Positions 4,727 to 37,348 of a stretch of 39,195 nt of DNA are shown here, piece after piece. The translations under genes and the position numbers were made by a program. Where the stretch lies: contig NZ_MKCR01000019.1 of the NCBI RefSeq assembly GCF_001855565.1, forward strand, positions 1 through 39,195, given 5' to 3'. The notes below the pieces were generated by a model that worked only from the letters and a program-made list of their open reading frames with translations, made no database searches and was not told where the DNA came from. Source of the stretch: Chromobacterium amazonense. GTDB taxonomy: Bacteria > Pseudomonadota > Gammaproteobacteria > Burkholderiales > Chromobacteriaceae. The number at the start of each line of letters is the position of its first letter. The first letter of the stretch is position 1.

Positions 4727-6328
4727 ATGATGAATTCTCCCGATTTTTCCCACACGCTCCCCGCCGCGCTGGATTTCCGCCAACGCCTGCAGGCCATGCT
4801 GGGCCTGTGCTGCGTGCTGATCATGGTGGCGCTGGACCAGACCGTGGTCGGCACCGCCATGCCGACGGTGGTGGCCGATCTGCGCGGCTTTTCGCTGTAC
4901 GCCTGGGTCGGCACGTCCTACCTGCTGACCTCCGTCATCACGGTGCCGATTTTCGGCAAGCTGGGCGACGACCACGGCCGCAAGCCGTTTGTGCTGACCG
5001 CCATCGTGCTGTTCACCGGCGCCTCCATGCTGTGCGGCCTGGCGCAGAACATGCCGCAACTGGTGATGGCGCGCGCGCTGCAGGGCGTGGGCGGCGGCAT
5101 GCTGGTGGCCACCACTTTCGCTTGCGTGCCGGACCTGTTTCCGCATACCGCCGAGCGGCTGCGCTGGCAGGTGATGCTGTCCGCCGCCTTCGGCCTGGCC
5201 AACGCCATCGGCCCCTCGCTGGGCGGCTTTCTGACCGAATACTTCGGCTGGCGCTGGGTATTCTTCGTCAACCTGCCGGTCGGCGTGGTCAGCCTGTGGT
5301 TCGTCTGGCGCTTCCTGCCGGTGATCCGCCACGACGAGCGGCCGCCGTCGCGGCTGGACTGGCAAGGGGCGGCGCTGATCGCGCTGTTCCTCGGCTCGCT
5401 GCAGCTGGCGGTGGAGTGGCTGCCGCAGCACAAGCCGCCGCTGCTGCTGGGCGGACTGGCCGTGCTCAGCCTGAGCGCGCTGCTGACCCTGGTCTGGTGG
5501 GAAAAGCGCAGCCCCAACCCGCTGCTGCCGCCCAGCATGCTGTTGCACCGCGGGCTGGCGCCGCTGTTCGGCCTGTCGCTGCTGATGGGCTTCGGCATGT
5601 TCGCCGTGATGTACTACGCGCCGCTGATGTTCCAGGCCGGTTTCAGCCTGTCGCCGAACCAGGCCGGCCTGCTGGTGACGCCGCTGGTGGTGTTCATCAC
5701 CATAGGCAGCATGCTGAACGGCCGCATCGTGCAGCGTTTGCGCCATCCGACACGGCTGCTGGCCCTGGGCCTGCTGATGTTCGCGTTGACCGCCGCGCTG
5801 CTGAGCCGGGTCGGCCCCGCCACCGCGCATGGTCTGATCATTGCCAACATGATGATGGGCGGCCTGGGCCTGGGCCTGCTGATGCCCAACCTGACCATTT
5901 TCGTGCAGCAGCTGGCGCCGCGGCAGCAGCTGGGGGTTGCCACCGCCATGCTGCAATCGACGCGCATGATAGGCGGCATGCTGGGCACCGCCTTGATGGG
6001 CGTGGTGGTCAGCCATCAGTTCCAGCAACGGGTCGGCGCGATGCTGGCGGACCGCCAGCAAGCCCAATGGCTGCACTGGCTGGCCGATCCGCAAACCCTG
6101 CTCAACCCTGACATCCTGGCGCAGTTCCGCCAAGCGGCCGCCGCGGCGCAGCCGGACGCGCAGCCGGACGCGCTGCTGGCCGCTGCCCGGCTGCTGCTGG
6201 TGGACGCCATCCATTTCAGCCAATGGCTGGTGGCGGTGATTCTGTTGCTGGGCCTGTGGCTGGCGCGCAAGGTGCCGCCGGTCGAGCTGAGCGGCTCCGC
6301 GCCGTCCCCGGCATCCGTCCATGACTGA
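4727..6328 (+). CDS. MFS drug exporter, DHA2 (EmrB/QacA) family
   Basis: This is a 533-residue inner-membrane proton antiporter with about 14 predicted membrane segments, as expected for the DHA2 group. The early loop carries GKLGDDHGRKP, a match to MFS motif A, and the first helix region contains LDQTVVGTAMPTV, a hallmark of EmrB-like pumps (D-x-T-x-V-x-x-A-x-P). A further GPSLGGFLTEYFGWRWVFFVNLP stretch is the drug-proton antiporter signature (motif C). The start is the first of two adjacent ATGs (4727 or 4730); no clear ribosome-binding site is visible. It overlaps the downstream marR gene by 8 bases, forming an exporter-regulator operon that probably responds to the exported compound. The substrate cannot be told from sequence. 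Confidence 0.9.
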   Translation: MMNSPDFSHTLPAALDFRQRLQAMLGLCCVLIMVALDQTVVGTAMPTVVADLRGFSLYAWVGTSYLLTSVITVPIFGKLGDDHGRKPFVLTAIVLFTGASMLCGLAQNMPQLVMARALQGVGGGMLVATTFACVPDLFPHTAERLRWQVMLSAAFGLANAIGPSLGGFLTEYFGWRWVFFVNLPVGVVSLWFVWRFLPVIRHDERPPSRLDWQGAALIALFLGSLQLAVEWLPQHKPPLLLGGLAVLSLSALLTLVWWEKRSPNPLLPPSMLLHRGLAPLFGLSLLMGFGMFAVMYYAPLMFQAGFSLSPNQAGLLVTPLVVFITIGSMLNGRIVQRLRHPTRLLALGLLMFALTAALLSRVGPATAHGLIIANMMMGGLGLGLLMPNLTIFVQQLAPRQQLGVATAMLQSTRMIGGMLGTALMGVVVSHQFQQRVGAMLADRQQAQWLHWLADPQTLLNPDILAQFRQAAAAAQPDAQPDALLAAARLLLVDAIHFSQWLVAVILLLGLWLARKVPPVELSGSAPSPASVHD

Positions 6329-21073: not shown

Positions 21074-22235
21074 GGAAGGTCTGAACAACCTGCCACGCAA
21101 ACAGAAATGCAATTTCTCGCGGGGCTTCGGTTGCATTTCACCCACCAATTCCAGATCGCCCGCCATGAGGATGACCGGGTGCTTCCGGTCATCCGGCCTT
21201 TTAACTCGCCGCCAGCAAGGCCTTTCGCGCCAGCCAGATGTTGGCCAGCCCAAACAGCGTCATCAGTTGCGCGGTGTTCTTCTTCAAACCGCGGTAGCGT
21301 GTTTTCAGGTAGCCAAACTGCTGCTTGATGACCCGAAACGGATGCTCCACTTTGGCCCGAATCTTGGCTTTGACCATTTCGCCCAGCTGGATCTGCCGGT
21401 CGTCGGCTGAATCGGTCAGCGCTTTGCGCTGGCCGGGCCTCATCGCAATCCACCAACGCACCGCTCGCGATTGGTGTTCGGCTCGCTTGTGCACGCCAGC
21501 AAAGCCGGCGTCGCCAAACACATCGATTTCCTCGCCGTGCAACAACTGATCGACCATCGTGACATCCGCCACATTGGCGGGGGTGCCGGCCACGTGATGC
21601 ACCAAGCCGGACTGGGCGTCGACGCCGATATGGGCCTTCATGCCGAAGTACCACTGATTGCCCTTCTTGGTTTGATGCATGTCCGGATCGCGCTCGCCCT
21701 GAGCGTTTTTGGTGGAGCTGGGCGCGTGGATCAGGGTGGCATCGACGATGGTGCCTTGCTTCAACATCAGCCCTTTGTCGCAGAGATGCTGGTGGATGGC
21801 GGTAAACAGAGCGTGGGTCAGCTGGTGCTTTTCCAGCAGATGGCGGAAGTTCAGCAGGGTGGTTTCGTCCGGGACGGCGTCCAGGGAGAGGCCGGCGAAC
21901 TGGCGCATGGAGGCGATCTCGTACAGGCTTTCTTCCATGGCGGGATCGGACAGGCTGTACCAGTGCTGCAGGCAGTAGACGCGCAGCATGGCGGACAACG
22001 GGTAGGGGCGGCGACCGTTGCCAGGCTTGGGATACACTGGATCGATGACGGCTTCGAGCTGCGCCCAAGGCATGACCTGATCCATCTCTGTCAGAAAGAT
22101 TTCGCGGCGGGTGCGCTTCTTCTTAGCGGCGAGTTCGAGATCGGTGAAGGTCATCTGCTGTCGCATGCTGGCGTCCTGGATCTGACTGAGGGGGAGTCAG
22201 TTTACGGGAAGATTGGAGACTTGTTCAGACCTTCC
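21074..22235 (-). mobile_element. IS5-family insertion sequence, complete, 1162 bp
   Basis: Perfect 15-bp terminal inverted repeats start GGAAGGTCTGAACAA (21074-21088) and end with their complement (22221-22235). They enclose one full-length transposase gene. TTAA occurs directly on both sides (21070-21073 and 22236-22239), a 4-bp target duplication of the YTAR type used by the IS5 group. Both ends and the reading frame are intact, so the insertion is recent and possibly active. Confidence 0.95.
21201..22166 (-). CDS. IS5-family DDE transposase
   Basis: This 321-residue transposase belongs to the IS5 group. The DUF772-type N-terminus holds the DNA-binding region with RPYPLSAMLRVYCLQHWYSLSDPAMEE. 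The DDE triad is D142 in GTIVDATLIHAPSSTKN, D219 in VFGDAGFAGVHKR and E274 in KIRAKVEHPFRVIK, with the Y-R-G-L-x-K-N motif following. No frameshift or stop interrupts it, so it should be functional. Start ATG at 22166; a second ATG four codons later is possible. Confidence 0.95.
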   Translation of the reverse strand: MRQQMTFTDLELAAKKKRTRREIFLTEMDQVMPWAQLEAVIDPVYPKPGNGRRPYPLSAMLRVYCLQHWYSLSDPAMEESLYEIASMRQFAGLSLDAVPDETTLLNFRHLLEKHQLTHALFTAIHQHLCDKGLMLKQGTIVDATLIHAPSSTKNAQGERDPDMHQTKKGNQWYFGMKAHIGVDAQSGLVHHVAGTPANVADVTMVDQLLHGEEIDVFGDAGFAGVHKRAEHQSRAVRWWIAMRPGQRKALTDSADDRQIQLGEMVKAKIRAKVEHPFRVIKQQFGYLKTRYRGLKKNTAQLMTLFGLANIWLARKALLAAS

Positions 22236-32942: not shown

Positions 32943-33638
32943 TCAATGGCTGTAGTGTCTGTCGCCGCAAATGGCCGAACCCACGCGCACCAGCGTGGCG
33001 CCTTCGGACACCGCCAGCTCCAGATCGGCCGACATGCCCATCGACAAGGTGTCCAGCGCCAGGCCCTCGGCGTTCAGTTGATCCCGCAGCCGCCGCAAAA
33101 CGGCGAACTGCGCGGCCAGCTTGGCCGCGTCCTCGGTTGGCTCCGGAATGCACATCAGTCCGCGCAGCCTCAGCCTCGGCATGGCCGCCGCGGCGCGCGC
33201 CAGTGCCATGGCCTCTTCCGGCGCGCAGCCGCTCTTGCTGTCTTCGCCGGAAACATTGACCTGCACGCATATGTTCAGCGGCGGCAGCGCGTCCGGCCGT
33301 TGCGCCGACAAGCGCTCGGCGATCTTGGGCCGGTCTACCGAATGCACCCAGTGCGCGCGTTCGGCCACCACGCGCGTCTTGTTCGACTGCAGGGGACCGA
33401 TGAAGTGCCATTCTACCGCCAGGTCGGCGAGCGCCTCGCATTTCTGCTGCAGTTCCTGCACGTAGTTTTCGCCAAAGGCTCGCTGGCCCAAGGCGAAGAG
33501 GTCGCGGATGTCGGCGGCGGGAAAAGTCTTGCTGACGGCGAGCAGGGCAACCGCGTCATCGGCGCGGCCAGCGGCCGCGCACGCCGCGCGCAGCCGCGAC
33601 TGCACCTGCGACAAGCGGGATGAGAGGGAATCTGTCAT
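32943..33638 (-). CDS. yggS: PLP homeostasis protein YggS (PLPBP family)
   Basis: This 231-residue TIM-barrel protein binds pyridoxal 5'-phosphate and balances its supply and amino-acid metabolism. The PLP lysine is in VALLAVSKTFPAADI (residue about 37). Other landmarks are FGENYVQELQQK, WHFIGPLQSNK, SVDRPKIAERLS, QVNVSGEDSKSGCAPEEA and LSMGMSADLELAVSEGATLVRVGSAIC. It is the first gene of the yggS-proC-yggT operon. In many betaproteobacteria it is adjacent and divergent to pilT; here a two-gene block separates them. Confidence 0.95.
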   Translation of the reverse strand: MTDSLSSRLSQVQSRLRAACAAAGRADDAVALLAVSKTFPAADIRDLFALGQRAFGENYVQELQQKCEALADLAVEWHFIGPLQSNKTRVVAERAHWVHSVDRPKIAERLSAQRPDALPPLNICVQVNVSGEDSKSGCAPEEAMALARAAAAMPRLRLRGLMCIPEPTEDAAKLAAQFAVLRRLRDQLNAEGLALDTLSMGMSADLELAVSEGATLVRVGSAICGDRHYSH

Positions 33639-33896
33639 GTATTAGGGGTCCGAGAGCGAATACCGGCCGTGGCCGGATGACGACTGCGTTATCGCGAAGA
33701 TTGTAGGGAAAGCGGCCGCGGATCACAATCGAACACCGCATCGCGCCATGGGCCGCGGCAGTGAACGCCGCGCGATGCAGCCACATTCTATATTGTTTCA
33801 ATAGAAATAATATCAATCAGCTAAATATTACATATGCATGTTGAAAGCCAGCCATCTGCGGTATGATGGTTGCCCCGCTTCCGCTGAATCCACGCC

Positions 33897-34391
33897 ATGA
33901 TTATCAGACTGATCGGTATTTCCTTGCTCGCCGCCTGGCTCTCTCTCCCCGTTCAGGCGCAATCGAATCCGATTCTCCTGACCGTCTCCGGGCATATCAG
34001 CCGCTATACCGACCCGCAGCAGAAAACCTATCAGTTCAGCGAGGCGGATCTACAGGCTTTGCCGCAGCATAAAATCGTCACGCAAACCAGCTGGACTCCG
34101 AAATCGACATTTTCCGGCCCACAGCTGCGCGATATTCTGCAAACAGTCGGCGCCAGCGGCGGCCAGGTCAAACTAACGGCGCTGAATGATTACACCTACA
34201 CCATCGCCGCCAAGGAGCTGGTCCAGTACGGCGTGATTCTGGCGCGGGAGCGGGATGGACGGAAAATGGACATTGCCGAGCGCGGGCCGCTGTGGCTGAT
34301 CTATCCGCTGGACAATATGCCTAGCCAGCTGCGCGGCCCGCTGCTCGACGCCAAGCTGGTTTGGCAAGTCAATCGCATCGATATCCGCTGA
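33897..34391 (+). CDS. PruR-like periplasmic sensor protein (molybdopterin-oxidoreductase-fold domain)
   Basis: This 164-residue exported protein has a signal peptide ending VQA at about residue 21. The mature part resembles the sulfite-oxidase/molybdopterin-binding fold: FSGPQLRDILQTVGASG, VKLTALNDYTYTIAAKEL, VILARERDGRKM and GPLWLIYPLDN. It contains no cysteine at all, so the Mo-ligating Cys is missing and it cannot be a normal molybdoenzyme. This is the pattern of PruR, which in Agrobacterium binds pterins in the periplasm and controls the membrane enzyme DcpA. It ends 7 bases before a hybrid histidine kinase gene, so it is probably the ligand-binding partner of that kinase. Ligand binding is inferred, not shown. 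Confidence 0.72.
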   Translation: MIIRLIGISLLAAWLSLPVQAQSNPILLTVSGHISRYTDPQQKTYQFSEADLQALPQHKIVTQTSWTPKSTFSGPQLRDILQTVGASGGQVKLTALNDYTYTIAAKELVQYGVILARERDGRKMDIAERGPLWLIYPLDNMPSQLRGPLLDAKLVWQVNRIDIR

Positions 34392-34398
34392 GGCCGCG

Positions 34399-36147
34399 AT
34401 GCCGACATCCCACCGCTCGCCAGAAGAGAAAATAGGCCGCCGGTTCCGCGCCGCCTGGAAAGGCGCCTCTCCCAGCATTCTGATGCTGCTGTTCGTCGTC
34501 GCCTCCGGCATTTACCTAGCAACGGAGCGCTTCATCGCGGCGCGCGCGCTGCCGCCGCATGGCGACGATCTGTATTGGAGCGTGGCGCAGCTGCAAGTGG
34601 AGCTGGAACGCTCGCGCGCCGAGCTGGAGCGGCTGCGCGGCGGCGAGATCGACGCCAGCCAGGCGCAGACTCGGCTGGCCATCGCCCAGAGCCGCACGCT
34701 GGATTTCCTGCTGCCGTCGCCGGTCGGCCGCCAGCTAAGCGGCATCAACGGTTTCGCTGCGCTGACCGAGCAGCTGCAACGCTTCTTCCACGACGAACGC
34801 GTGCGCCACCCGCAACCGGCCGACGCCGCGGCGCTGGTCGCCGCCATCGACCAGCTGCGGCCTACCCTGGCCGAGTTCGCCGTGCAGTCGCGCGTGGCCG
34901 AGGTCGGCGCCCGCGAAGCGCGCAACCGCGAGCAGGAGCGCAATCAGCATCTGATGTCGCTGTGGTTCGCGCTGTGGGTGGCCATCTGCATTGCCATTCT
35001 CTGCCTGCTGTATCGCTACCAGAACGCCCGCCGCGACGTCGCCTCGCACCAGGCGCTGTTGGAGCAAGAGCGCGCCGCCCACCAGGCGACGGTGGCGGCC
35101 GAGCTGGACCGCACCACCTTCCTCGCCACCATCAGCCACGAAATTCGCTCGCCGCTGCAGACGATGCAGGTCTGCGTCGAACTGATCGAGCCGCAGATCG
35201 CGTCCGGCGGCAAAACCCATGCCGCGCTGTCGCGGCTGAAGTCCAGCATGGCGCACTTGATGACCCAGGTGCGCGACATCATGGACATTTCCGCCATCCA
35301 CAACATGCAGTTCCGGCTGCAGCCGGAAGACATCGACCTCGCCCAGATACTGCACGAGGCGATAGACGCCTACCGGGTACAGCTGGAAGGCAAGGGGCTG
35401 CAGCTGAGCGTGGCGCTGGAAGACCTGCCGCCGCTGGCGAGGCTGGATGGCTGCCGGCTGCGCCAGATCGTCGGCAACCTGATCTCCAACGCCATCCGCT
35501 ACACCGACCACGGCTCGGTAACGGTAGCGGCGCGCGTGGAAACCGCGGACGGCCTGTCCGTGCTGGAAGTCCGCGTCGCCGACACCGGCATCGGCGTGCC
35601 GGCCGACCTGCAGTCGCGCATCTTCCAGCCGTTCTTCCAGGGCCGCCAGCGCCGGCCCGGCAGCAGCGGGCTGGGATTGGCCATCGTCAAGGAGCTGGTG
35701 CGGCTGCTGGGCGGGGAAATCGCCCTGCGCAGCGAGGAGGGCCGGGGTTCAGAATTCTCTGTGCGGCTGCCCATCCAGCTGACGCTAACCGCGCCGGACA
35801 AAACCATTCTGCTGGTGGATGACGACCCGAATATCCGCGAGCCTTTCGCCGACTGCCTGGCGCTGGATGGCTACGCGGTCACCACCGCCGCGACGGCCGC
35901 GGAGGCCTGTCGGCGGCTGCGGGAACAGGCCTTCGGCGTCATCCTGCTGGATATGCAGCTGGGCGCGGACAGCGGCTACGATGTGGCCTCCAAGGCGCGC
36001 GATGGTTTGAATCGGGCCGCGCGGCTGATCGCGATGACCGCCTATCCGGAAGAGTACAGCGACCCGCGCGCCGCCTGGTTCGACGAAAGGCTGGAAAAGC
36101 CGTTCGACCTGAGCCGTTTGCGCGCCAGCCTGCGCCAGCGCGGCTAA
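34399..36147 (+). CDS. Membrane hybrid histidine kinase
   Basis: This is a 582-residue sensor kinase. Two membrane segments (about 26-43 and 187-207) enclose a periplasmic, mostly helical domain of about 145 residues with coiled-coil character. A coiled linker leads to HisKA with H247 in TISHEIRSPLQ, then HATPase with NLISNAIRYT, DTGIGVP, FQPFFQG and GLGLAIVKEL. The C-terminal receiver has ILLVDDDPN, phospho-acceptor D518 in ILLDMQLG, MTAY and EKPF. No Hpt or output domain is present, so the phosphate must pass to a separate Hpt or regulator. Seven bases separate it from the PruR-like gene; pilT follows after 163 bases. The periplasmic domain is a plausible docking site for that protein. Confidence 0.88.
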   Translation: MPTSHRSPEEKIGRRFRAAWKGASPSILMLLFVVASGIYLATERFIAARALPPHGDDLYWSVAQLQVELERSRAELERLRGGEIDASQAQTRLAIAQSRTLDFLLPSPVGRQLSGINGFAALTEQLQRFFHDERVRHPQPADAAALVAAIDQLRPTLAEFAVQSRVAEVGAREARNREQERNQHLMSLWFALWVAICIAILCLLYRYQNARRDVASHQALLEQERAAHQATVAAELDRTTFLATISHEIRSPLQTMQVCVELIEPQIASGGKTHAALSRLKSSMAHLMTQVRDIMDISAIHNMQFRLQPEDIDLAQILHEAIDAYRVQLEGKGLQLSVALEDLPPLARLDGCRLRQIVGNLISNAIRYTDHGSVTVAARVETADGLSVLEVRVADTGIGVPADLQSRIFQPFFQGRQRRPGSSGLGLAIVKELVRLLGGEIALRSEEGRGSEFSVRLPIQLTLTAPDKTILLVDDDPNIREPFADCLALDGYAVTTAATAAEACRRLREQAFGVILLDMQLGADSGYDVASKARDGLNRAARLIAMTAYPEEYSDPRAAWFDERLEKPFDLSRLRASLRQRG

Positions 36148-36310
36148 GCCCCCAGGCGCGGCCGATGCGTTTTTCGGCACACGCGCCCGGCGCGGCGCGC
36201 GATTTTGTTGCGCCGGCTGCCCGCTACGCTTGAGAATGCACGGATAATCGCGCCCGTCCCTCCCCGCGCATGGACGGAGGCGCGTCCGCAATCTCGCAAC
36301 GGGTCTCGAT

Positions 36311-37348
<1,038 letters not shown>

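What the first reader, a model, noticed from the sequence alone, without database searches (positions are those of the whole stretch)
33897..36147. PruR-like periplasmic pterin-sensor paired with a hybrid histidine kinase next to pilTU
The first gene encodes an exported, cysteine-free protein of the molybdopterin-oxidoreductase fold (NDY and GPLWLIYP motifs). The second, 7 bases on, encodes a two-TM hybrid kinase with a helical periplasmic domain. Known PruR proteins bind pterins and control a cyclic-di-GMP enzyme (DcpA in Agrobacterium). Here the partner is a kinase with receiver, so the output would be a phosphorelay rather than cyclic di-GMP directly. The block sits between yggS and pilT, which are often neighbours, suggesting insertion near motility genes.
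Basis: partly seen in the sequence, partly recalled or inferred. Interest (0 to 1): 0.72.

Follow-up and report, generated by a model that had tools for sequence, protein, structure and literature searches.

The report
Pterin-sensor protein with partner kinase
A Chromobacterium genome carries a small exported protein that looks like a known pterin (vitamin-like molecule) sensor, next to the membrane kinase it probably controls; the kind is already described, but its relatives may tie together bacterial signalling systems whose trigger is unknown.

Summary
Window 33897-34391 encodes a 164-aa exported, cysteine-free protein. Its best PDB sequence match is Agrobacterium PruR (E 4e-20), and its (weak) model's top seven structural matches are PruR crystals. 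Seven bases on, 34399-36147 encodes a two-TM HisKA-HATPase-REC kinase with the WX7E motif. Its periplasmic domain matches that of PruR-linked GGDEF-EAL proteins (hhalign E 5e-10). This is a PruR-DTB pair, a published class: a new member of a known kind.

(2) BetR-type regulator genes track the Air-type and two smaller kinase classes, never this one, which suggests without proving that this orphan kinase feeds the genome's single BetR regulator. (3) A similar set (BetR-REC, PruR, hybrid kinase) lies beside transfer genes on both enterobacterial conjugative plasmids opened. No held paper I found links Air, Serratia Reg1-Reg2-BetR or these plasmids to pterins.

The pilTU link is positional: 14 of 19 genus genomes have yggS-pilT without the pair. 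Pterin binding and output are untested.

The parts
33897..34391 (+). PruR-type periplasmic protein, 164 aa; signal peptide about residues 1-21 (by eye); N97, Y99, W156 correspond to A. tumefaciens N102, Y104, W160
   Evidence: ORF; phmmer to 7kos E 4.2e-20; residue mapping counted by hand on its alignment; W156 in 39 of 39 PruR rows, Y99 in 33 with F in 6, N97 in 28 with D in 11; Foldseek
34399..36147 (+). DTB-type hybrid histidine kinase, 582 aa
   Evidence: best NCBIfam TorS 209.5 bits, below its 676.5 cut-off
34534..34944 (+). periplasmic sensor domain, about residues 46-182, DcpA-like
   Evidence: (hhalign 96.6%, E 5e-10)
34576..34602 (+). WX7E motif (W60, E68)
   Evidence: motif named in PMC13259868 section 8
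35110..35298 (+). HisKA with presumed phospho-acceptor H247
35455..35778 (+). HATPase_c domain
35806..36132 (+). receiver domain with D518, T547 and K567 in place; no HPt domain follows
   Evidence: roles of these residues recalled
33774..33896 (+). A+T-rich upstream stretch, presumed promoter region (no sigma-70-like match on this strand)
   Evidence: position
36182..36199 (+). terminator-like stem after the kinase (3 such found in the scanned region, 1.6 expected in shuffles, so weak)
33453..33773 (.). left flank that aligns with the pair-free site of relative G017
36142..36350 (.). right flank that aligns with the pair-free site of relative G017

Best explanation
The pair is a PruR-DTB signalling unit. 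The small exported protein binds a small, probably reduced, pterin in the periplasm in a truncated sulfite-oxidase-type pocket, as PruR does, and docks on the helical periplasmic domain of the kinase around the WX7E helix. This sets the balance between kinase and phosphatase in a hybrid kinase that ends in a receiver and has no HPt. It is a paralogue, in the sister clade, of the pair on contig C2 of the same genome, which has the gene layout of AirM-AirS-AirR. The most likely output is phosphotransfer to the genome's only BetR-REC regulator (the presumed AirR on C2), so that two or three pterin-sensor kinases would converge on one transcription factor. Shown: fold, pairing, motifs, sensor-domain homology, clade, gene counts. 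Inferred: pterin ligand (about 0.75), PruR-kinase contact (about 0.8), output through BetR (about 0.4).
For: PruR sequence and fold (model pLDDT only 60). Cys-free, N/Y/W positions kept. Sensor domain: hhalign 96.6%, E 5e-10, to PruR-linked GGDEF-EAL proteins (domains by Pfam); that profile finds two places at E <= 0.01 in the whole genome, the kinases of C18 and C19, both beside a PruR. WX7E. Pair conserved. Pteridine reductase in the genome: NF006598, 370 bits vs cut-off 288. Tree: class I 13 rows 97/91, with class II (the clade with the C2 kinase) 99/98. BetR genes: 26 in 19 genus genomes, 20 within 1 kb and 23 within 4 kb of one of the 59 PruR-kinase pairs compared; BetR and REC both over cut-off in 10 of 10 checked. 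Their number equals class II + V + VI in 17 of 17 genomes with class II, a rule noticed after the fact by reading. Class I and II agree at 77% of seven positions after the phospho-His against 57% over the core, class I and IV at 14%.
Against: No pterin-binding or phosphotransfer data. No response regulator lies next to this pair. Class III shares the same positions (71% with I, 86% with II), so they do not single out a BetR partner for class I. G010 has a BetR gene and no PruR; G011 has BetR and no class II. In a class-wide sample BetR is in 2 of 369 genomes and PruR in 30 of 369, only the own genome in both, so co-occurrence could not be tested outside the genus. The DcpA-type profile found C18 and C19 but not the C2 kinase, so sensor similarity is uneven. 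No AirS sequence was compared; the C2 set is called Air by layout. In C. violaceum ATCC 12472 the antibiotic-violacein phenotype of Air was not seen (PMC11019928 passage).
Confidence: 0.68

Rival explanations
1. Same sensor, other output: the kinase passes phosphate through its REC and a stand-alone HPt to a different regulator, for example a REC-EAL protein, so the result is c-di-GMP or another regulon rather than BetR.
For: The genome has 11 HPt matches, one in a 195-aa ORF of its own, and two full-length relatives of a REC-EAL protein (C3:249658 at 37%, C26:27737 at 33% identity; not checked by Pfam). Class IV relatives pair PruR-kinase-REC-HPt with a REC-EAL gene in 3 of 3 loci examined, of 11 class IV rows.
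Against: Class IV kinases agree with class I at only 14% of the seven positions after the phospho-His and carry their own HPt. No REC-EAL gene lies beside this pair.
Confidence: 0.35
2. The small protein keeps the SUOX-like fold but senses something other than a free reduced pterin (another small molecule or a redox state), as the Air paper's authors supposed for AirM.
For: PMC7240160 suggests an oxidative change as the signal and reports induction by translation inhibitors (passages). N97 varies to D and Y99 to F among 39 PruR rows.
Against: The residues named for pterin contact in PruR are kept in the window protein, and one solved PruR, 7rkb, is titled as in complex with neopterin.
Confidence: 0.2
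3. The pair is a functional part of the pilTU (twitching) locus.
For: It sits between yggS and pilT in G000, G003, G007 and G008, and about 1 kb before pilT in G014.
Against: 14 of 19 genus genomes have yggS-pilT 129-275 bp apart with no pair; 8 of 13 class I pairs are not near pilT. The REC-TPR gene after pilU is found in 8 of the 10 pair-free loci examined (10 of 14 such loci), so it belongs to the pil locus and not to the pair.
Confidence: 0.08

Closest known systems
PruR-DTB systems (PruR with DcpA-TorS-BaeS type kinase); PMC13259868 section 8, citing Greenwich et al. 2024 PNAS (not held)
   Same: Two-gene order, exported PruR-type protein, DcpA-type periplasmic domain with WX7E, TorS-like kinase with REC
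   Different: Nothing tested that defines the class differs; periplasmic domain about 137 aa here against about 190 aa quoted; no PAS found; the site beside pilT is its own
AirM-AirS-AirR of Chromobacterium (PMC7240160 passages; PMC11019928 passages)
   Same: AirM is an OxMoco-domain protein in one operon with the sensor kinase AirS; the authors note three other sensor kinase genes similarly arranged in that genome. The window pair is of this sort, and its kinase clade is sister to the clade whose members mostly face a convergent BetR gene
   Different: No BetR gene next to the window pair; its kinase is 48% identical to the C2 paralogue. AirM and AirS sequences themselves were not compared
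Reg1-Reg2-BetR (EepS-EepR) of Serratia marcescens (PMC7618870 abstract and passages)
   Same: Described as possible periplasmic sensing protein, membrane kinase with receiver, BetR-family regulator; signal unknown
   Different: Reg1 and Reg2 sequences were not obtained, so that Reg1 is a PruR is inference; the window pair has no BetR neighbour
PruR-DcpA of Agrobacterium
   Same: PruR protein and sensor domain type
   Different: DcpA has GGDEF-EAL output; here a histidine kinase and receiver

Membership tests
PruR | SUOX-type fold closest to PruR crystal structures | tested here: met
   E 4.2e-20; ranks 1-7 all PruR, best E 8.3e-10; the model itself is low-confidence
PruR | no Mo-ligating Cys; Trp at the A. 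tumefaciens W160 position; N102/Y104 counterparts | tested here: met
   features from PMC13259868 section 7 and a passage of section 11
PruR | N-terminal secretion signal, about 170 aa | tested here: met
   164 aa; hydrophobic N-terminus ending VQAQ judged by eye, no signal-peptide program
PruR | binds reduced pterin | not testable with these tools
   needs purified protein
DTB kinase | gene directly downstream of pruR in a two-gene unit | tested here: met
   7 nt gap; co-transcription not tested
DTB kinase | DcpA-type periplasmic domain with WX7E | tested here: met
   compared with PruR-linked GGDEF-EAL proteins of the same bacterial family (Pfam), not with A. tumefaciens DcpA itself
DTB kinase | kinase part most like TorS/BaeS | tested here: met
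   TorS best (209.5 bits), BaeS_SmeS 112.9 bits with several families between; both below the equivalog cut-offs, so it is not TorS or BaeS
DTB kinase | periplasmic contact with PruR | not testable with these tools
AirMSR | convergent BetR-family regulator next to the pair | tested here: not met
   neighbours are yggS and pilT; met for the C2 pair of the same genome (L031)
PruR-DcpA | GGDEF-EAL output domains | tested here: not met

The most novel reading that the evidence does not exclude
PruR-DTB, Chromobacterium AirMSR, Serratia Reg1-Reg2-BetR and a module on enterobacterial conjugative plasmids are one family: a periplasmic reduced-pterin sensor and kinase that report to a BetR-type regulator. 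The unknown signals of the Air and Serratia lifestyle switches would then be periplasmic or extracellular pterins. In Chromobacterium several paralogous pterin sensors, the window pair among them, would converge on one BetR regulator, while conjugative plasmids would carry their own copy.
Probability: 0.35. Interest if true: 0.75.

Novelty: new member of a known kind. Interest (0 to 1): 0.4.

Why it matters
The window pair alone adds one well-formed member to a published class. Placing it among its paralogues connects two literatures that, as far as I could see in the library searched, do not refer to each other: pterin signalling through PruR, and the Air and BetR-family switches that govern antibiotic-induced pigment, siderophores, type VI secretion and adhesion, whose authors say that the signal is unknown. 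It gives a concrete ligand class to test.

Tried and rejected
Moco enzyme: no Cys, and PF00174 below its cut-off. DcpA-like c-di-GMP enzyme: no GGDEF/EAL. REC-TPR gene after pilU as partner regulator: also present where the pair is absent, in 8 of 10 pair-free loci (one of the two misses, L155, ends 1.75 kb after pilU). Known RNA element near the pair: none at gathering threshold in 33400-36500. Class-wide co-occurrence of BetR and PruR: BetR too rare, 2 of 369. Kinase sensor model against PDB: nothing at E <= 0.001, best 0.11. Window kinase N-terminus on plasmids: no match at 1e-5. Insertion against loss: G017 lacks the pair and its flanks align with the window's; in the class II part of the tree it groups with G000 and G003 only weakly (81/37), inside a 100/98 group with occupied G007. 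Loss in G017 is likelier than gain but not settled.

Rows dropped: the kinase tree holds 59 rows, all of one genus; at least 3 further genus pairs (G005:C1:3854713, G016:C35, G011:C4) and all pairs outside the genus were left out. Classes were assigned by hand from identity and architecture before the tree; class V is not a clade on its own (2 changes, the single class VI row falls inside it), and the tool warns of long branches between I-III and IV-VI. Of the 18 PruR hits without a listed kinase, 3 have a kinase (L051-L053), 5 a GGDEF-EAL and 4 a GGDEF partner (Pfam), and 6 (L054-L058, L068) showed neither a kinase match nor a GGDEF motif.

Full report
Observation. The closest named record is Chromobacterium sinusclupearum (PruR-type protein 99%; its contig has the length of contig C6 of handle G003, whose kinase is 97% identical), so the window is a Chromobacterium.

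The small protein. Pfam PF00174 is just below its cut-off. A sequence search of the PDB gives four PruR-type proteins (7kos E 4.2e-20, 7rkb, 7kp2, 7kom) and then one chance-level match at 0.78. An AlphaFold model from four sequences is weak (pLDDT 60), yet Foldseek ranks seven PruR chains first (best E 8.3e-10), then sulfite oxidases from 3.7e-4. The review by Rucker et al. (PMC13259868; abstract, sections 7 and 8, the first part of the reference list and search passages seen) names N102, Y104 and W160 of A. tumefaciens PruR. Counted by hand on the alignment, they map with one constant offset to N97, Y99 and W156. W156 is kept in 39 of 39 PruR rows, Y99 in 33 (F in 6), N97 in 28 (D in 11) (related rows, not independent).

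The kinase. HisKA, HATPase_c and Response_reg exceed their cut-offs; H247, the N, D and G boxes and the receiver's D, T and K are in place (roles recalled). The periplasmic part is predicted helical and has no significant PDB match. It carries W60-x7-E68, the motif given for the class. In five genomes of the same bacterial family PruR is followed by a GGDEF-EAL protein (L059, L062, L063, L064, L066; Pfam), and the window's periplasmic domain matches theirs by phmmer (2e-6 to 3e-5), BLASTP (7e-8, single pair with L062) and hhalign (96.6%, E 5e-10 over 155 columns). Searching the whole genome with the profile of those sensor parts gives two places at E <= 0.01, the C18 and C19 kinases; the C2 kinase is not found. 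So the window pair has the PruR-DcpA type of sensor on a kinase: a PruR-DTB system.

Conservation. 47 of 101 related genomes have a PruR hit, 99 hits in all. A listed kinase hit lies within 1.5 kb downstream for 81 of 99 (for some the match covers the kinase core only). Of the other 18, 3 have a kinase, 5 a GGDEF-EAL, 4 a GGDEF partner and 6 neither. The window's genome has three pairs: C19 (window), C2 and C18.

Paralogue classes. I sorted 59 genus pairs by hand by identity and architecture, then built a kinase tree. Class I (window type, 13 genomes), II (17), III (11) and IV (11) each form one side of a branch; I and II together have 99/98 support. Class V (6) takes in the single class VI row. 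The tool warns that the long branches between I-III and IV-VI may mislead. Class IV kinases run on for 267-278 residues after the core; in the three I scanned this is REC-HPt, and a REC-EAL gene lies directly upstream of PruR in all three. Class V kinases lack REC.

BetR. In L031 the C2 pair faces a convergent gene with BetR and Response_reg domains. This is the layout given for airMS-airR in Chromobacterium (PMC7240160; [quoted passage not shown] I did not compare AirS itself, so 'Air orthologue' rests on layout and genus. A later paper ties CV_0535-37 to siderophores and reports that the antibiotic-violacein phenotype was not seen in ATCC 12472 (PMC11019928, passages). BetR genes: 26 in the 19 genus genomes, 20 within 1 kb and 23 within 4 kb of one of the 59 pairs; BetR and REC domains over cut-off in 10 of 10 checked (one of them is the C2 gene). 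Reading together, after the fact, BetR number equals class II + V + VI in 17 of 17 genomes that have class II; classes I, III and IV bring none. G010 (BetR, no PruR) and G011 (BetR, no class II) do not fit. At seven positions after the phospho-His that I recall as bearing on partner choice, class I agrees with II at 77%, III 71%, V 57% and IV 14%, and II with III at 86%; core identities are 57, 51, 36, 34 and 49% (13, 6, 4, 9 and 10 genomes). This favours, without proving, one shared regulator for I, II and III.

Location. yggS and pilT are 129-275 bp apart without the pair in 14 of 19 genus genomes; the pair sits between them in 4 (G000, G003, G007, G008); in G014 the pair precedes pilT and yggS is 51 kb away (gaps computed by hand; pairs). 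The pair-free site of G017 aligns with window 33453-33773 and 36142-36350. G+C is 0.53-0.60 at 33600-34399, against 0.63-0.70 on the yggS side, 0.64-0.71 in the kinase and 0.59-0.65 in pilTU. The pair is a block that comes and goes; no functional tie to pilTU is shown.

Supply of ligand. The genome encodes a pteridine reductase by NCBIfam NF006598 (370 bits, cut-off 288) at C12:86481-87203, matching the PruA role in the A. tumefaciens model.

Plasmids. The window PruR finds 649 of 72,556 plasmid records (400 predicted conjugative), among them Klebsiella 265, Escherichia 57, Salmonella 29, Shigella 15. Two records were opened (L094, L095): both have BetR-REC, an unassigned gene, PruR and a hybrid kinase near transfer genes (Pfam). 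The N-terminal part of the L095 kinase matches 423 records (360 conjugative) and its BetR-REC 470 (387 conjugative), with similar counts by organism; that the genes lie together was seen only in the two records opened, and, for kinase beside PruR, in the annotation columns of several listed rows. WX7E was not checked in the plasmid kinases. The window kinase N-terminus itself finds no plasmid match.

Literature limits. In the open-licence PMC library the searches 'PruR pterin', 'PruR DcpA', 'PruR-DTB', AirS/AirR/AirM/Chromobacterium, BetR with response regulator and histidine kinase, conjugative plasmid with hybrid sensor kinase and molybdopterin, and EepR/EepS/pterin/PruR/AirMSR/OxMoco showed, judged by their listings, no paper that joins these systems. 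The PruR review does not contain AirM, violacein, Serratia, BetR or plasmid. The Air paper and the Serratia paper do not contain 'pterin' as a word start. The original PruR paper was not held and may say more.

Verdict. Ordinary in kind, well formed, with a useful bridge to systems of unknown signal.

Noticed in passing
L094:3059-7156 (NZ_OM105937.1) and L095:2967-6976 (NZ_CP109976.1): Two conjugative plasmids of enterobacteria carry BetR-REC, an unassigned gene, PruR and a hybrid kinase near transfer genes; PruR, the kinase N-terminus and BetR-REC each match more than 400 plasmid records.
   Followed up: partly
L041:8267-9499, L046:6284-7504, L047:4397-5626: REC-EAL genes directly upstream of PruR and an HPt-bearing hybrid kinase: a branch in the genus that would turn the PruR signal back into c-di-GMP control.
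   Followed up: partly
L054, L056, L057, L058 (about 4.0-4.7 kb) and L055 (1.6-2.1 kb): PruR-type genes in five genus genomes with no kinase match or GGDEF motif beside them.
   Followed up: partly
L045:2727-8098 (G009 contig C25): A divergent PruR-kinase pair a few kb from ParA- and ParB-like genes (by eye), possibly on a mobile element; a BetR gene lies 2.8 kb away.
   Followed up: no
window 21201-22166 and L032:3613-4578, 4920-5885: Transposase-like ORFs of equal length (321 aa) and equal first 60 residues, in the window and twice beside the C18 PruR-kinase pair.
   Followed up: no
L031:1502-9398: The C2 (Air-type) pair lies between a flagellin-like gene and, beyond BetR, flhA/flhB-like genes (by eye); one class IV pair (L047) lies near cheB/fliE/fliF-like genes (by eye).
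   Followed up: no
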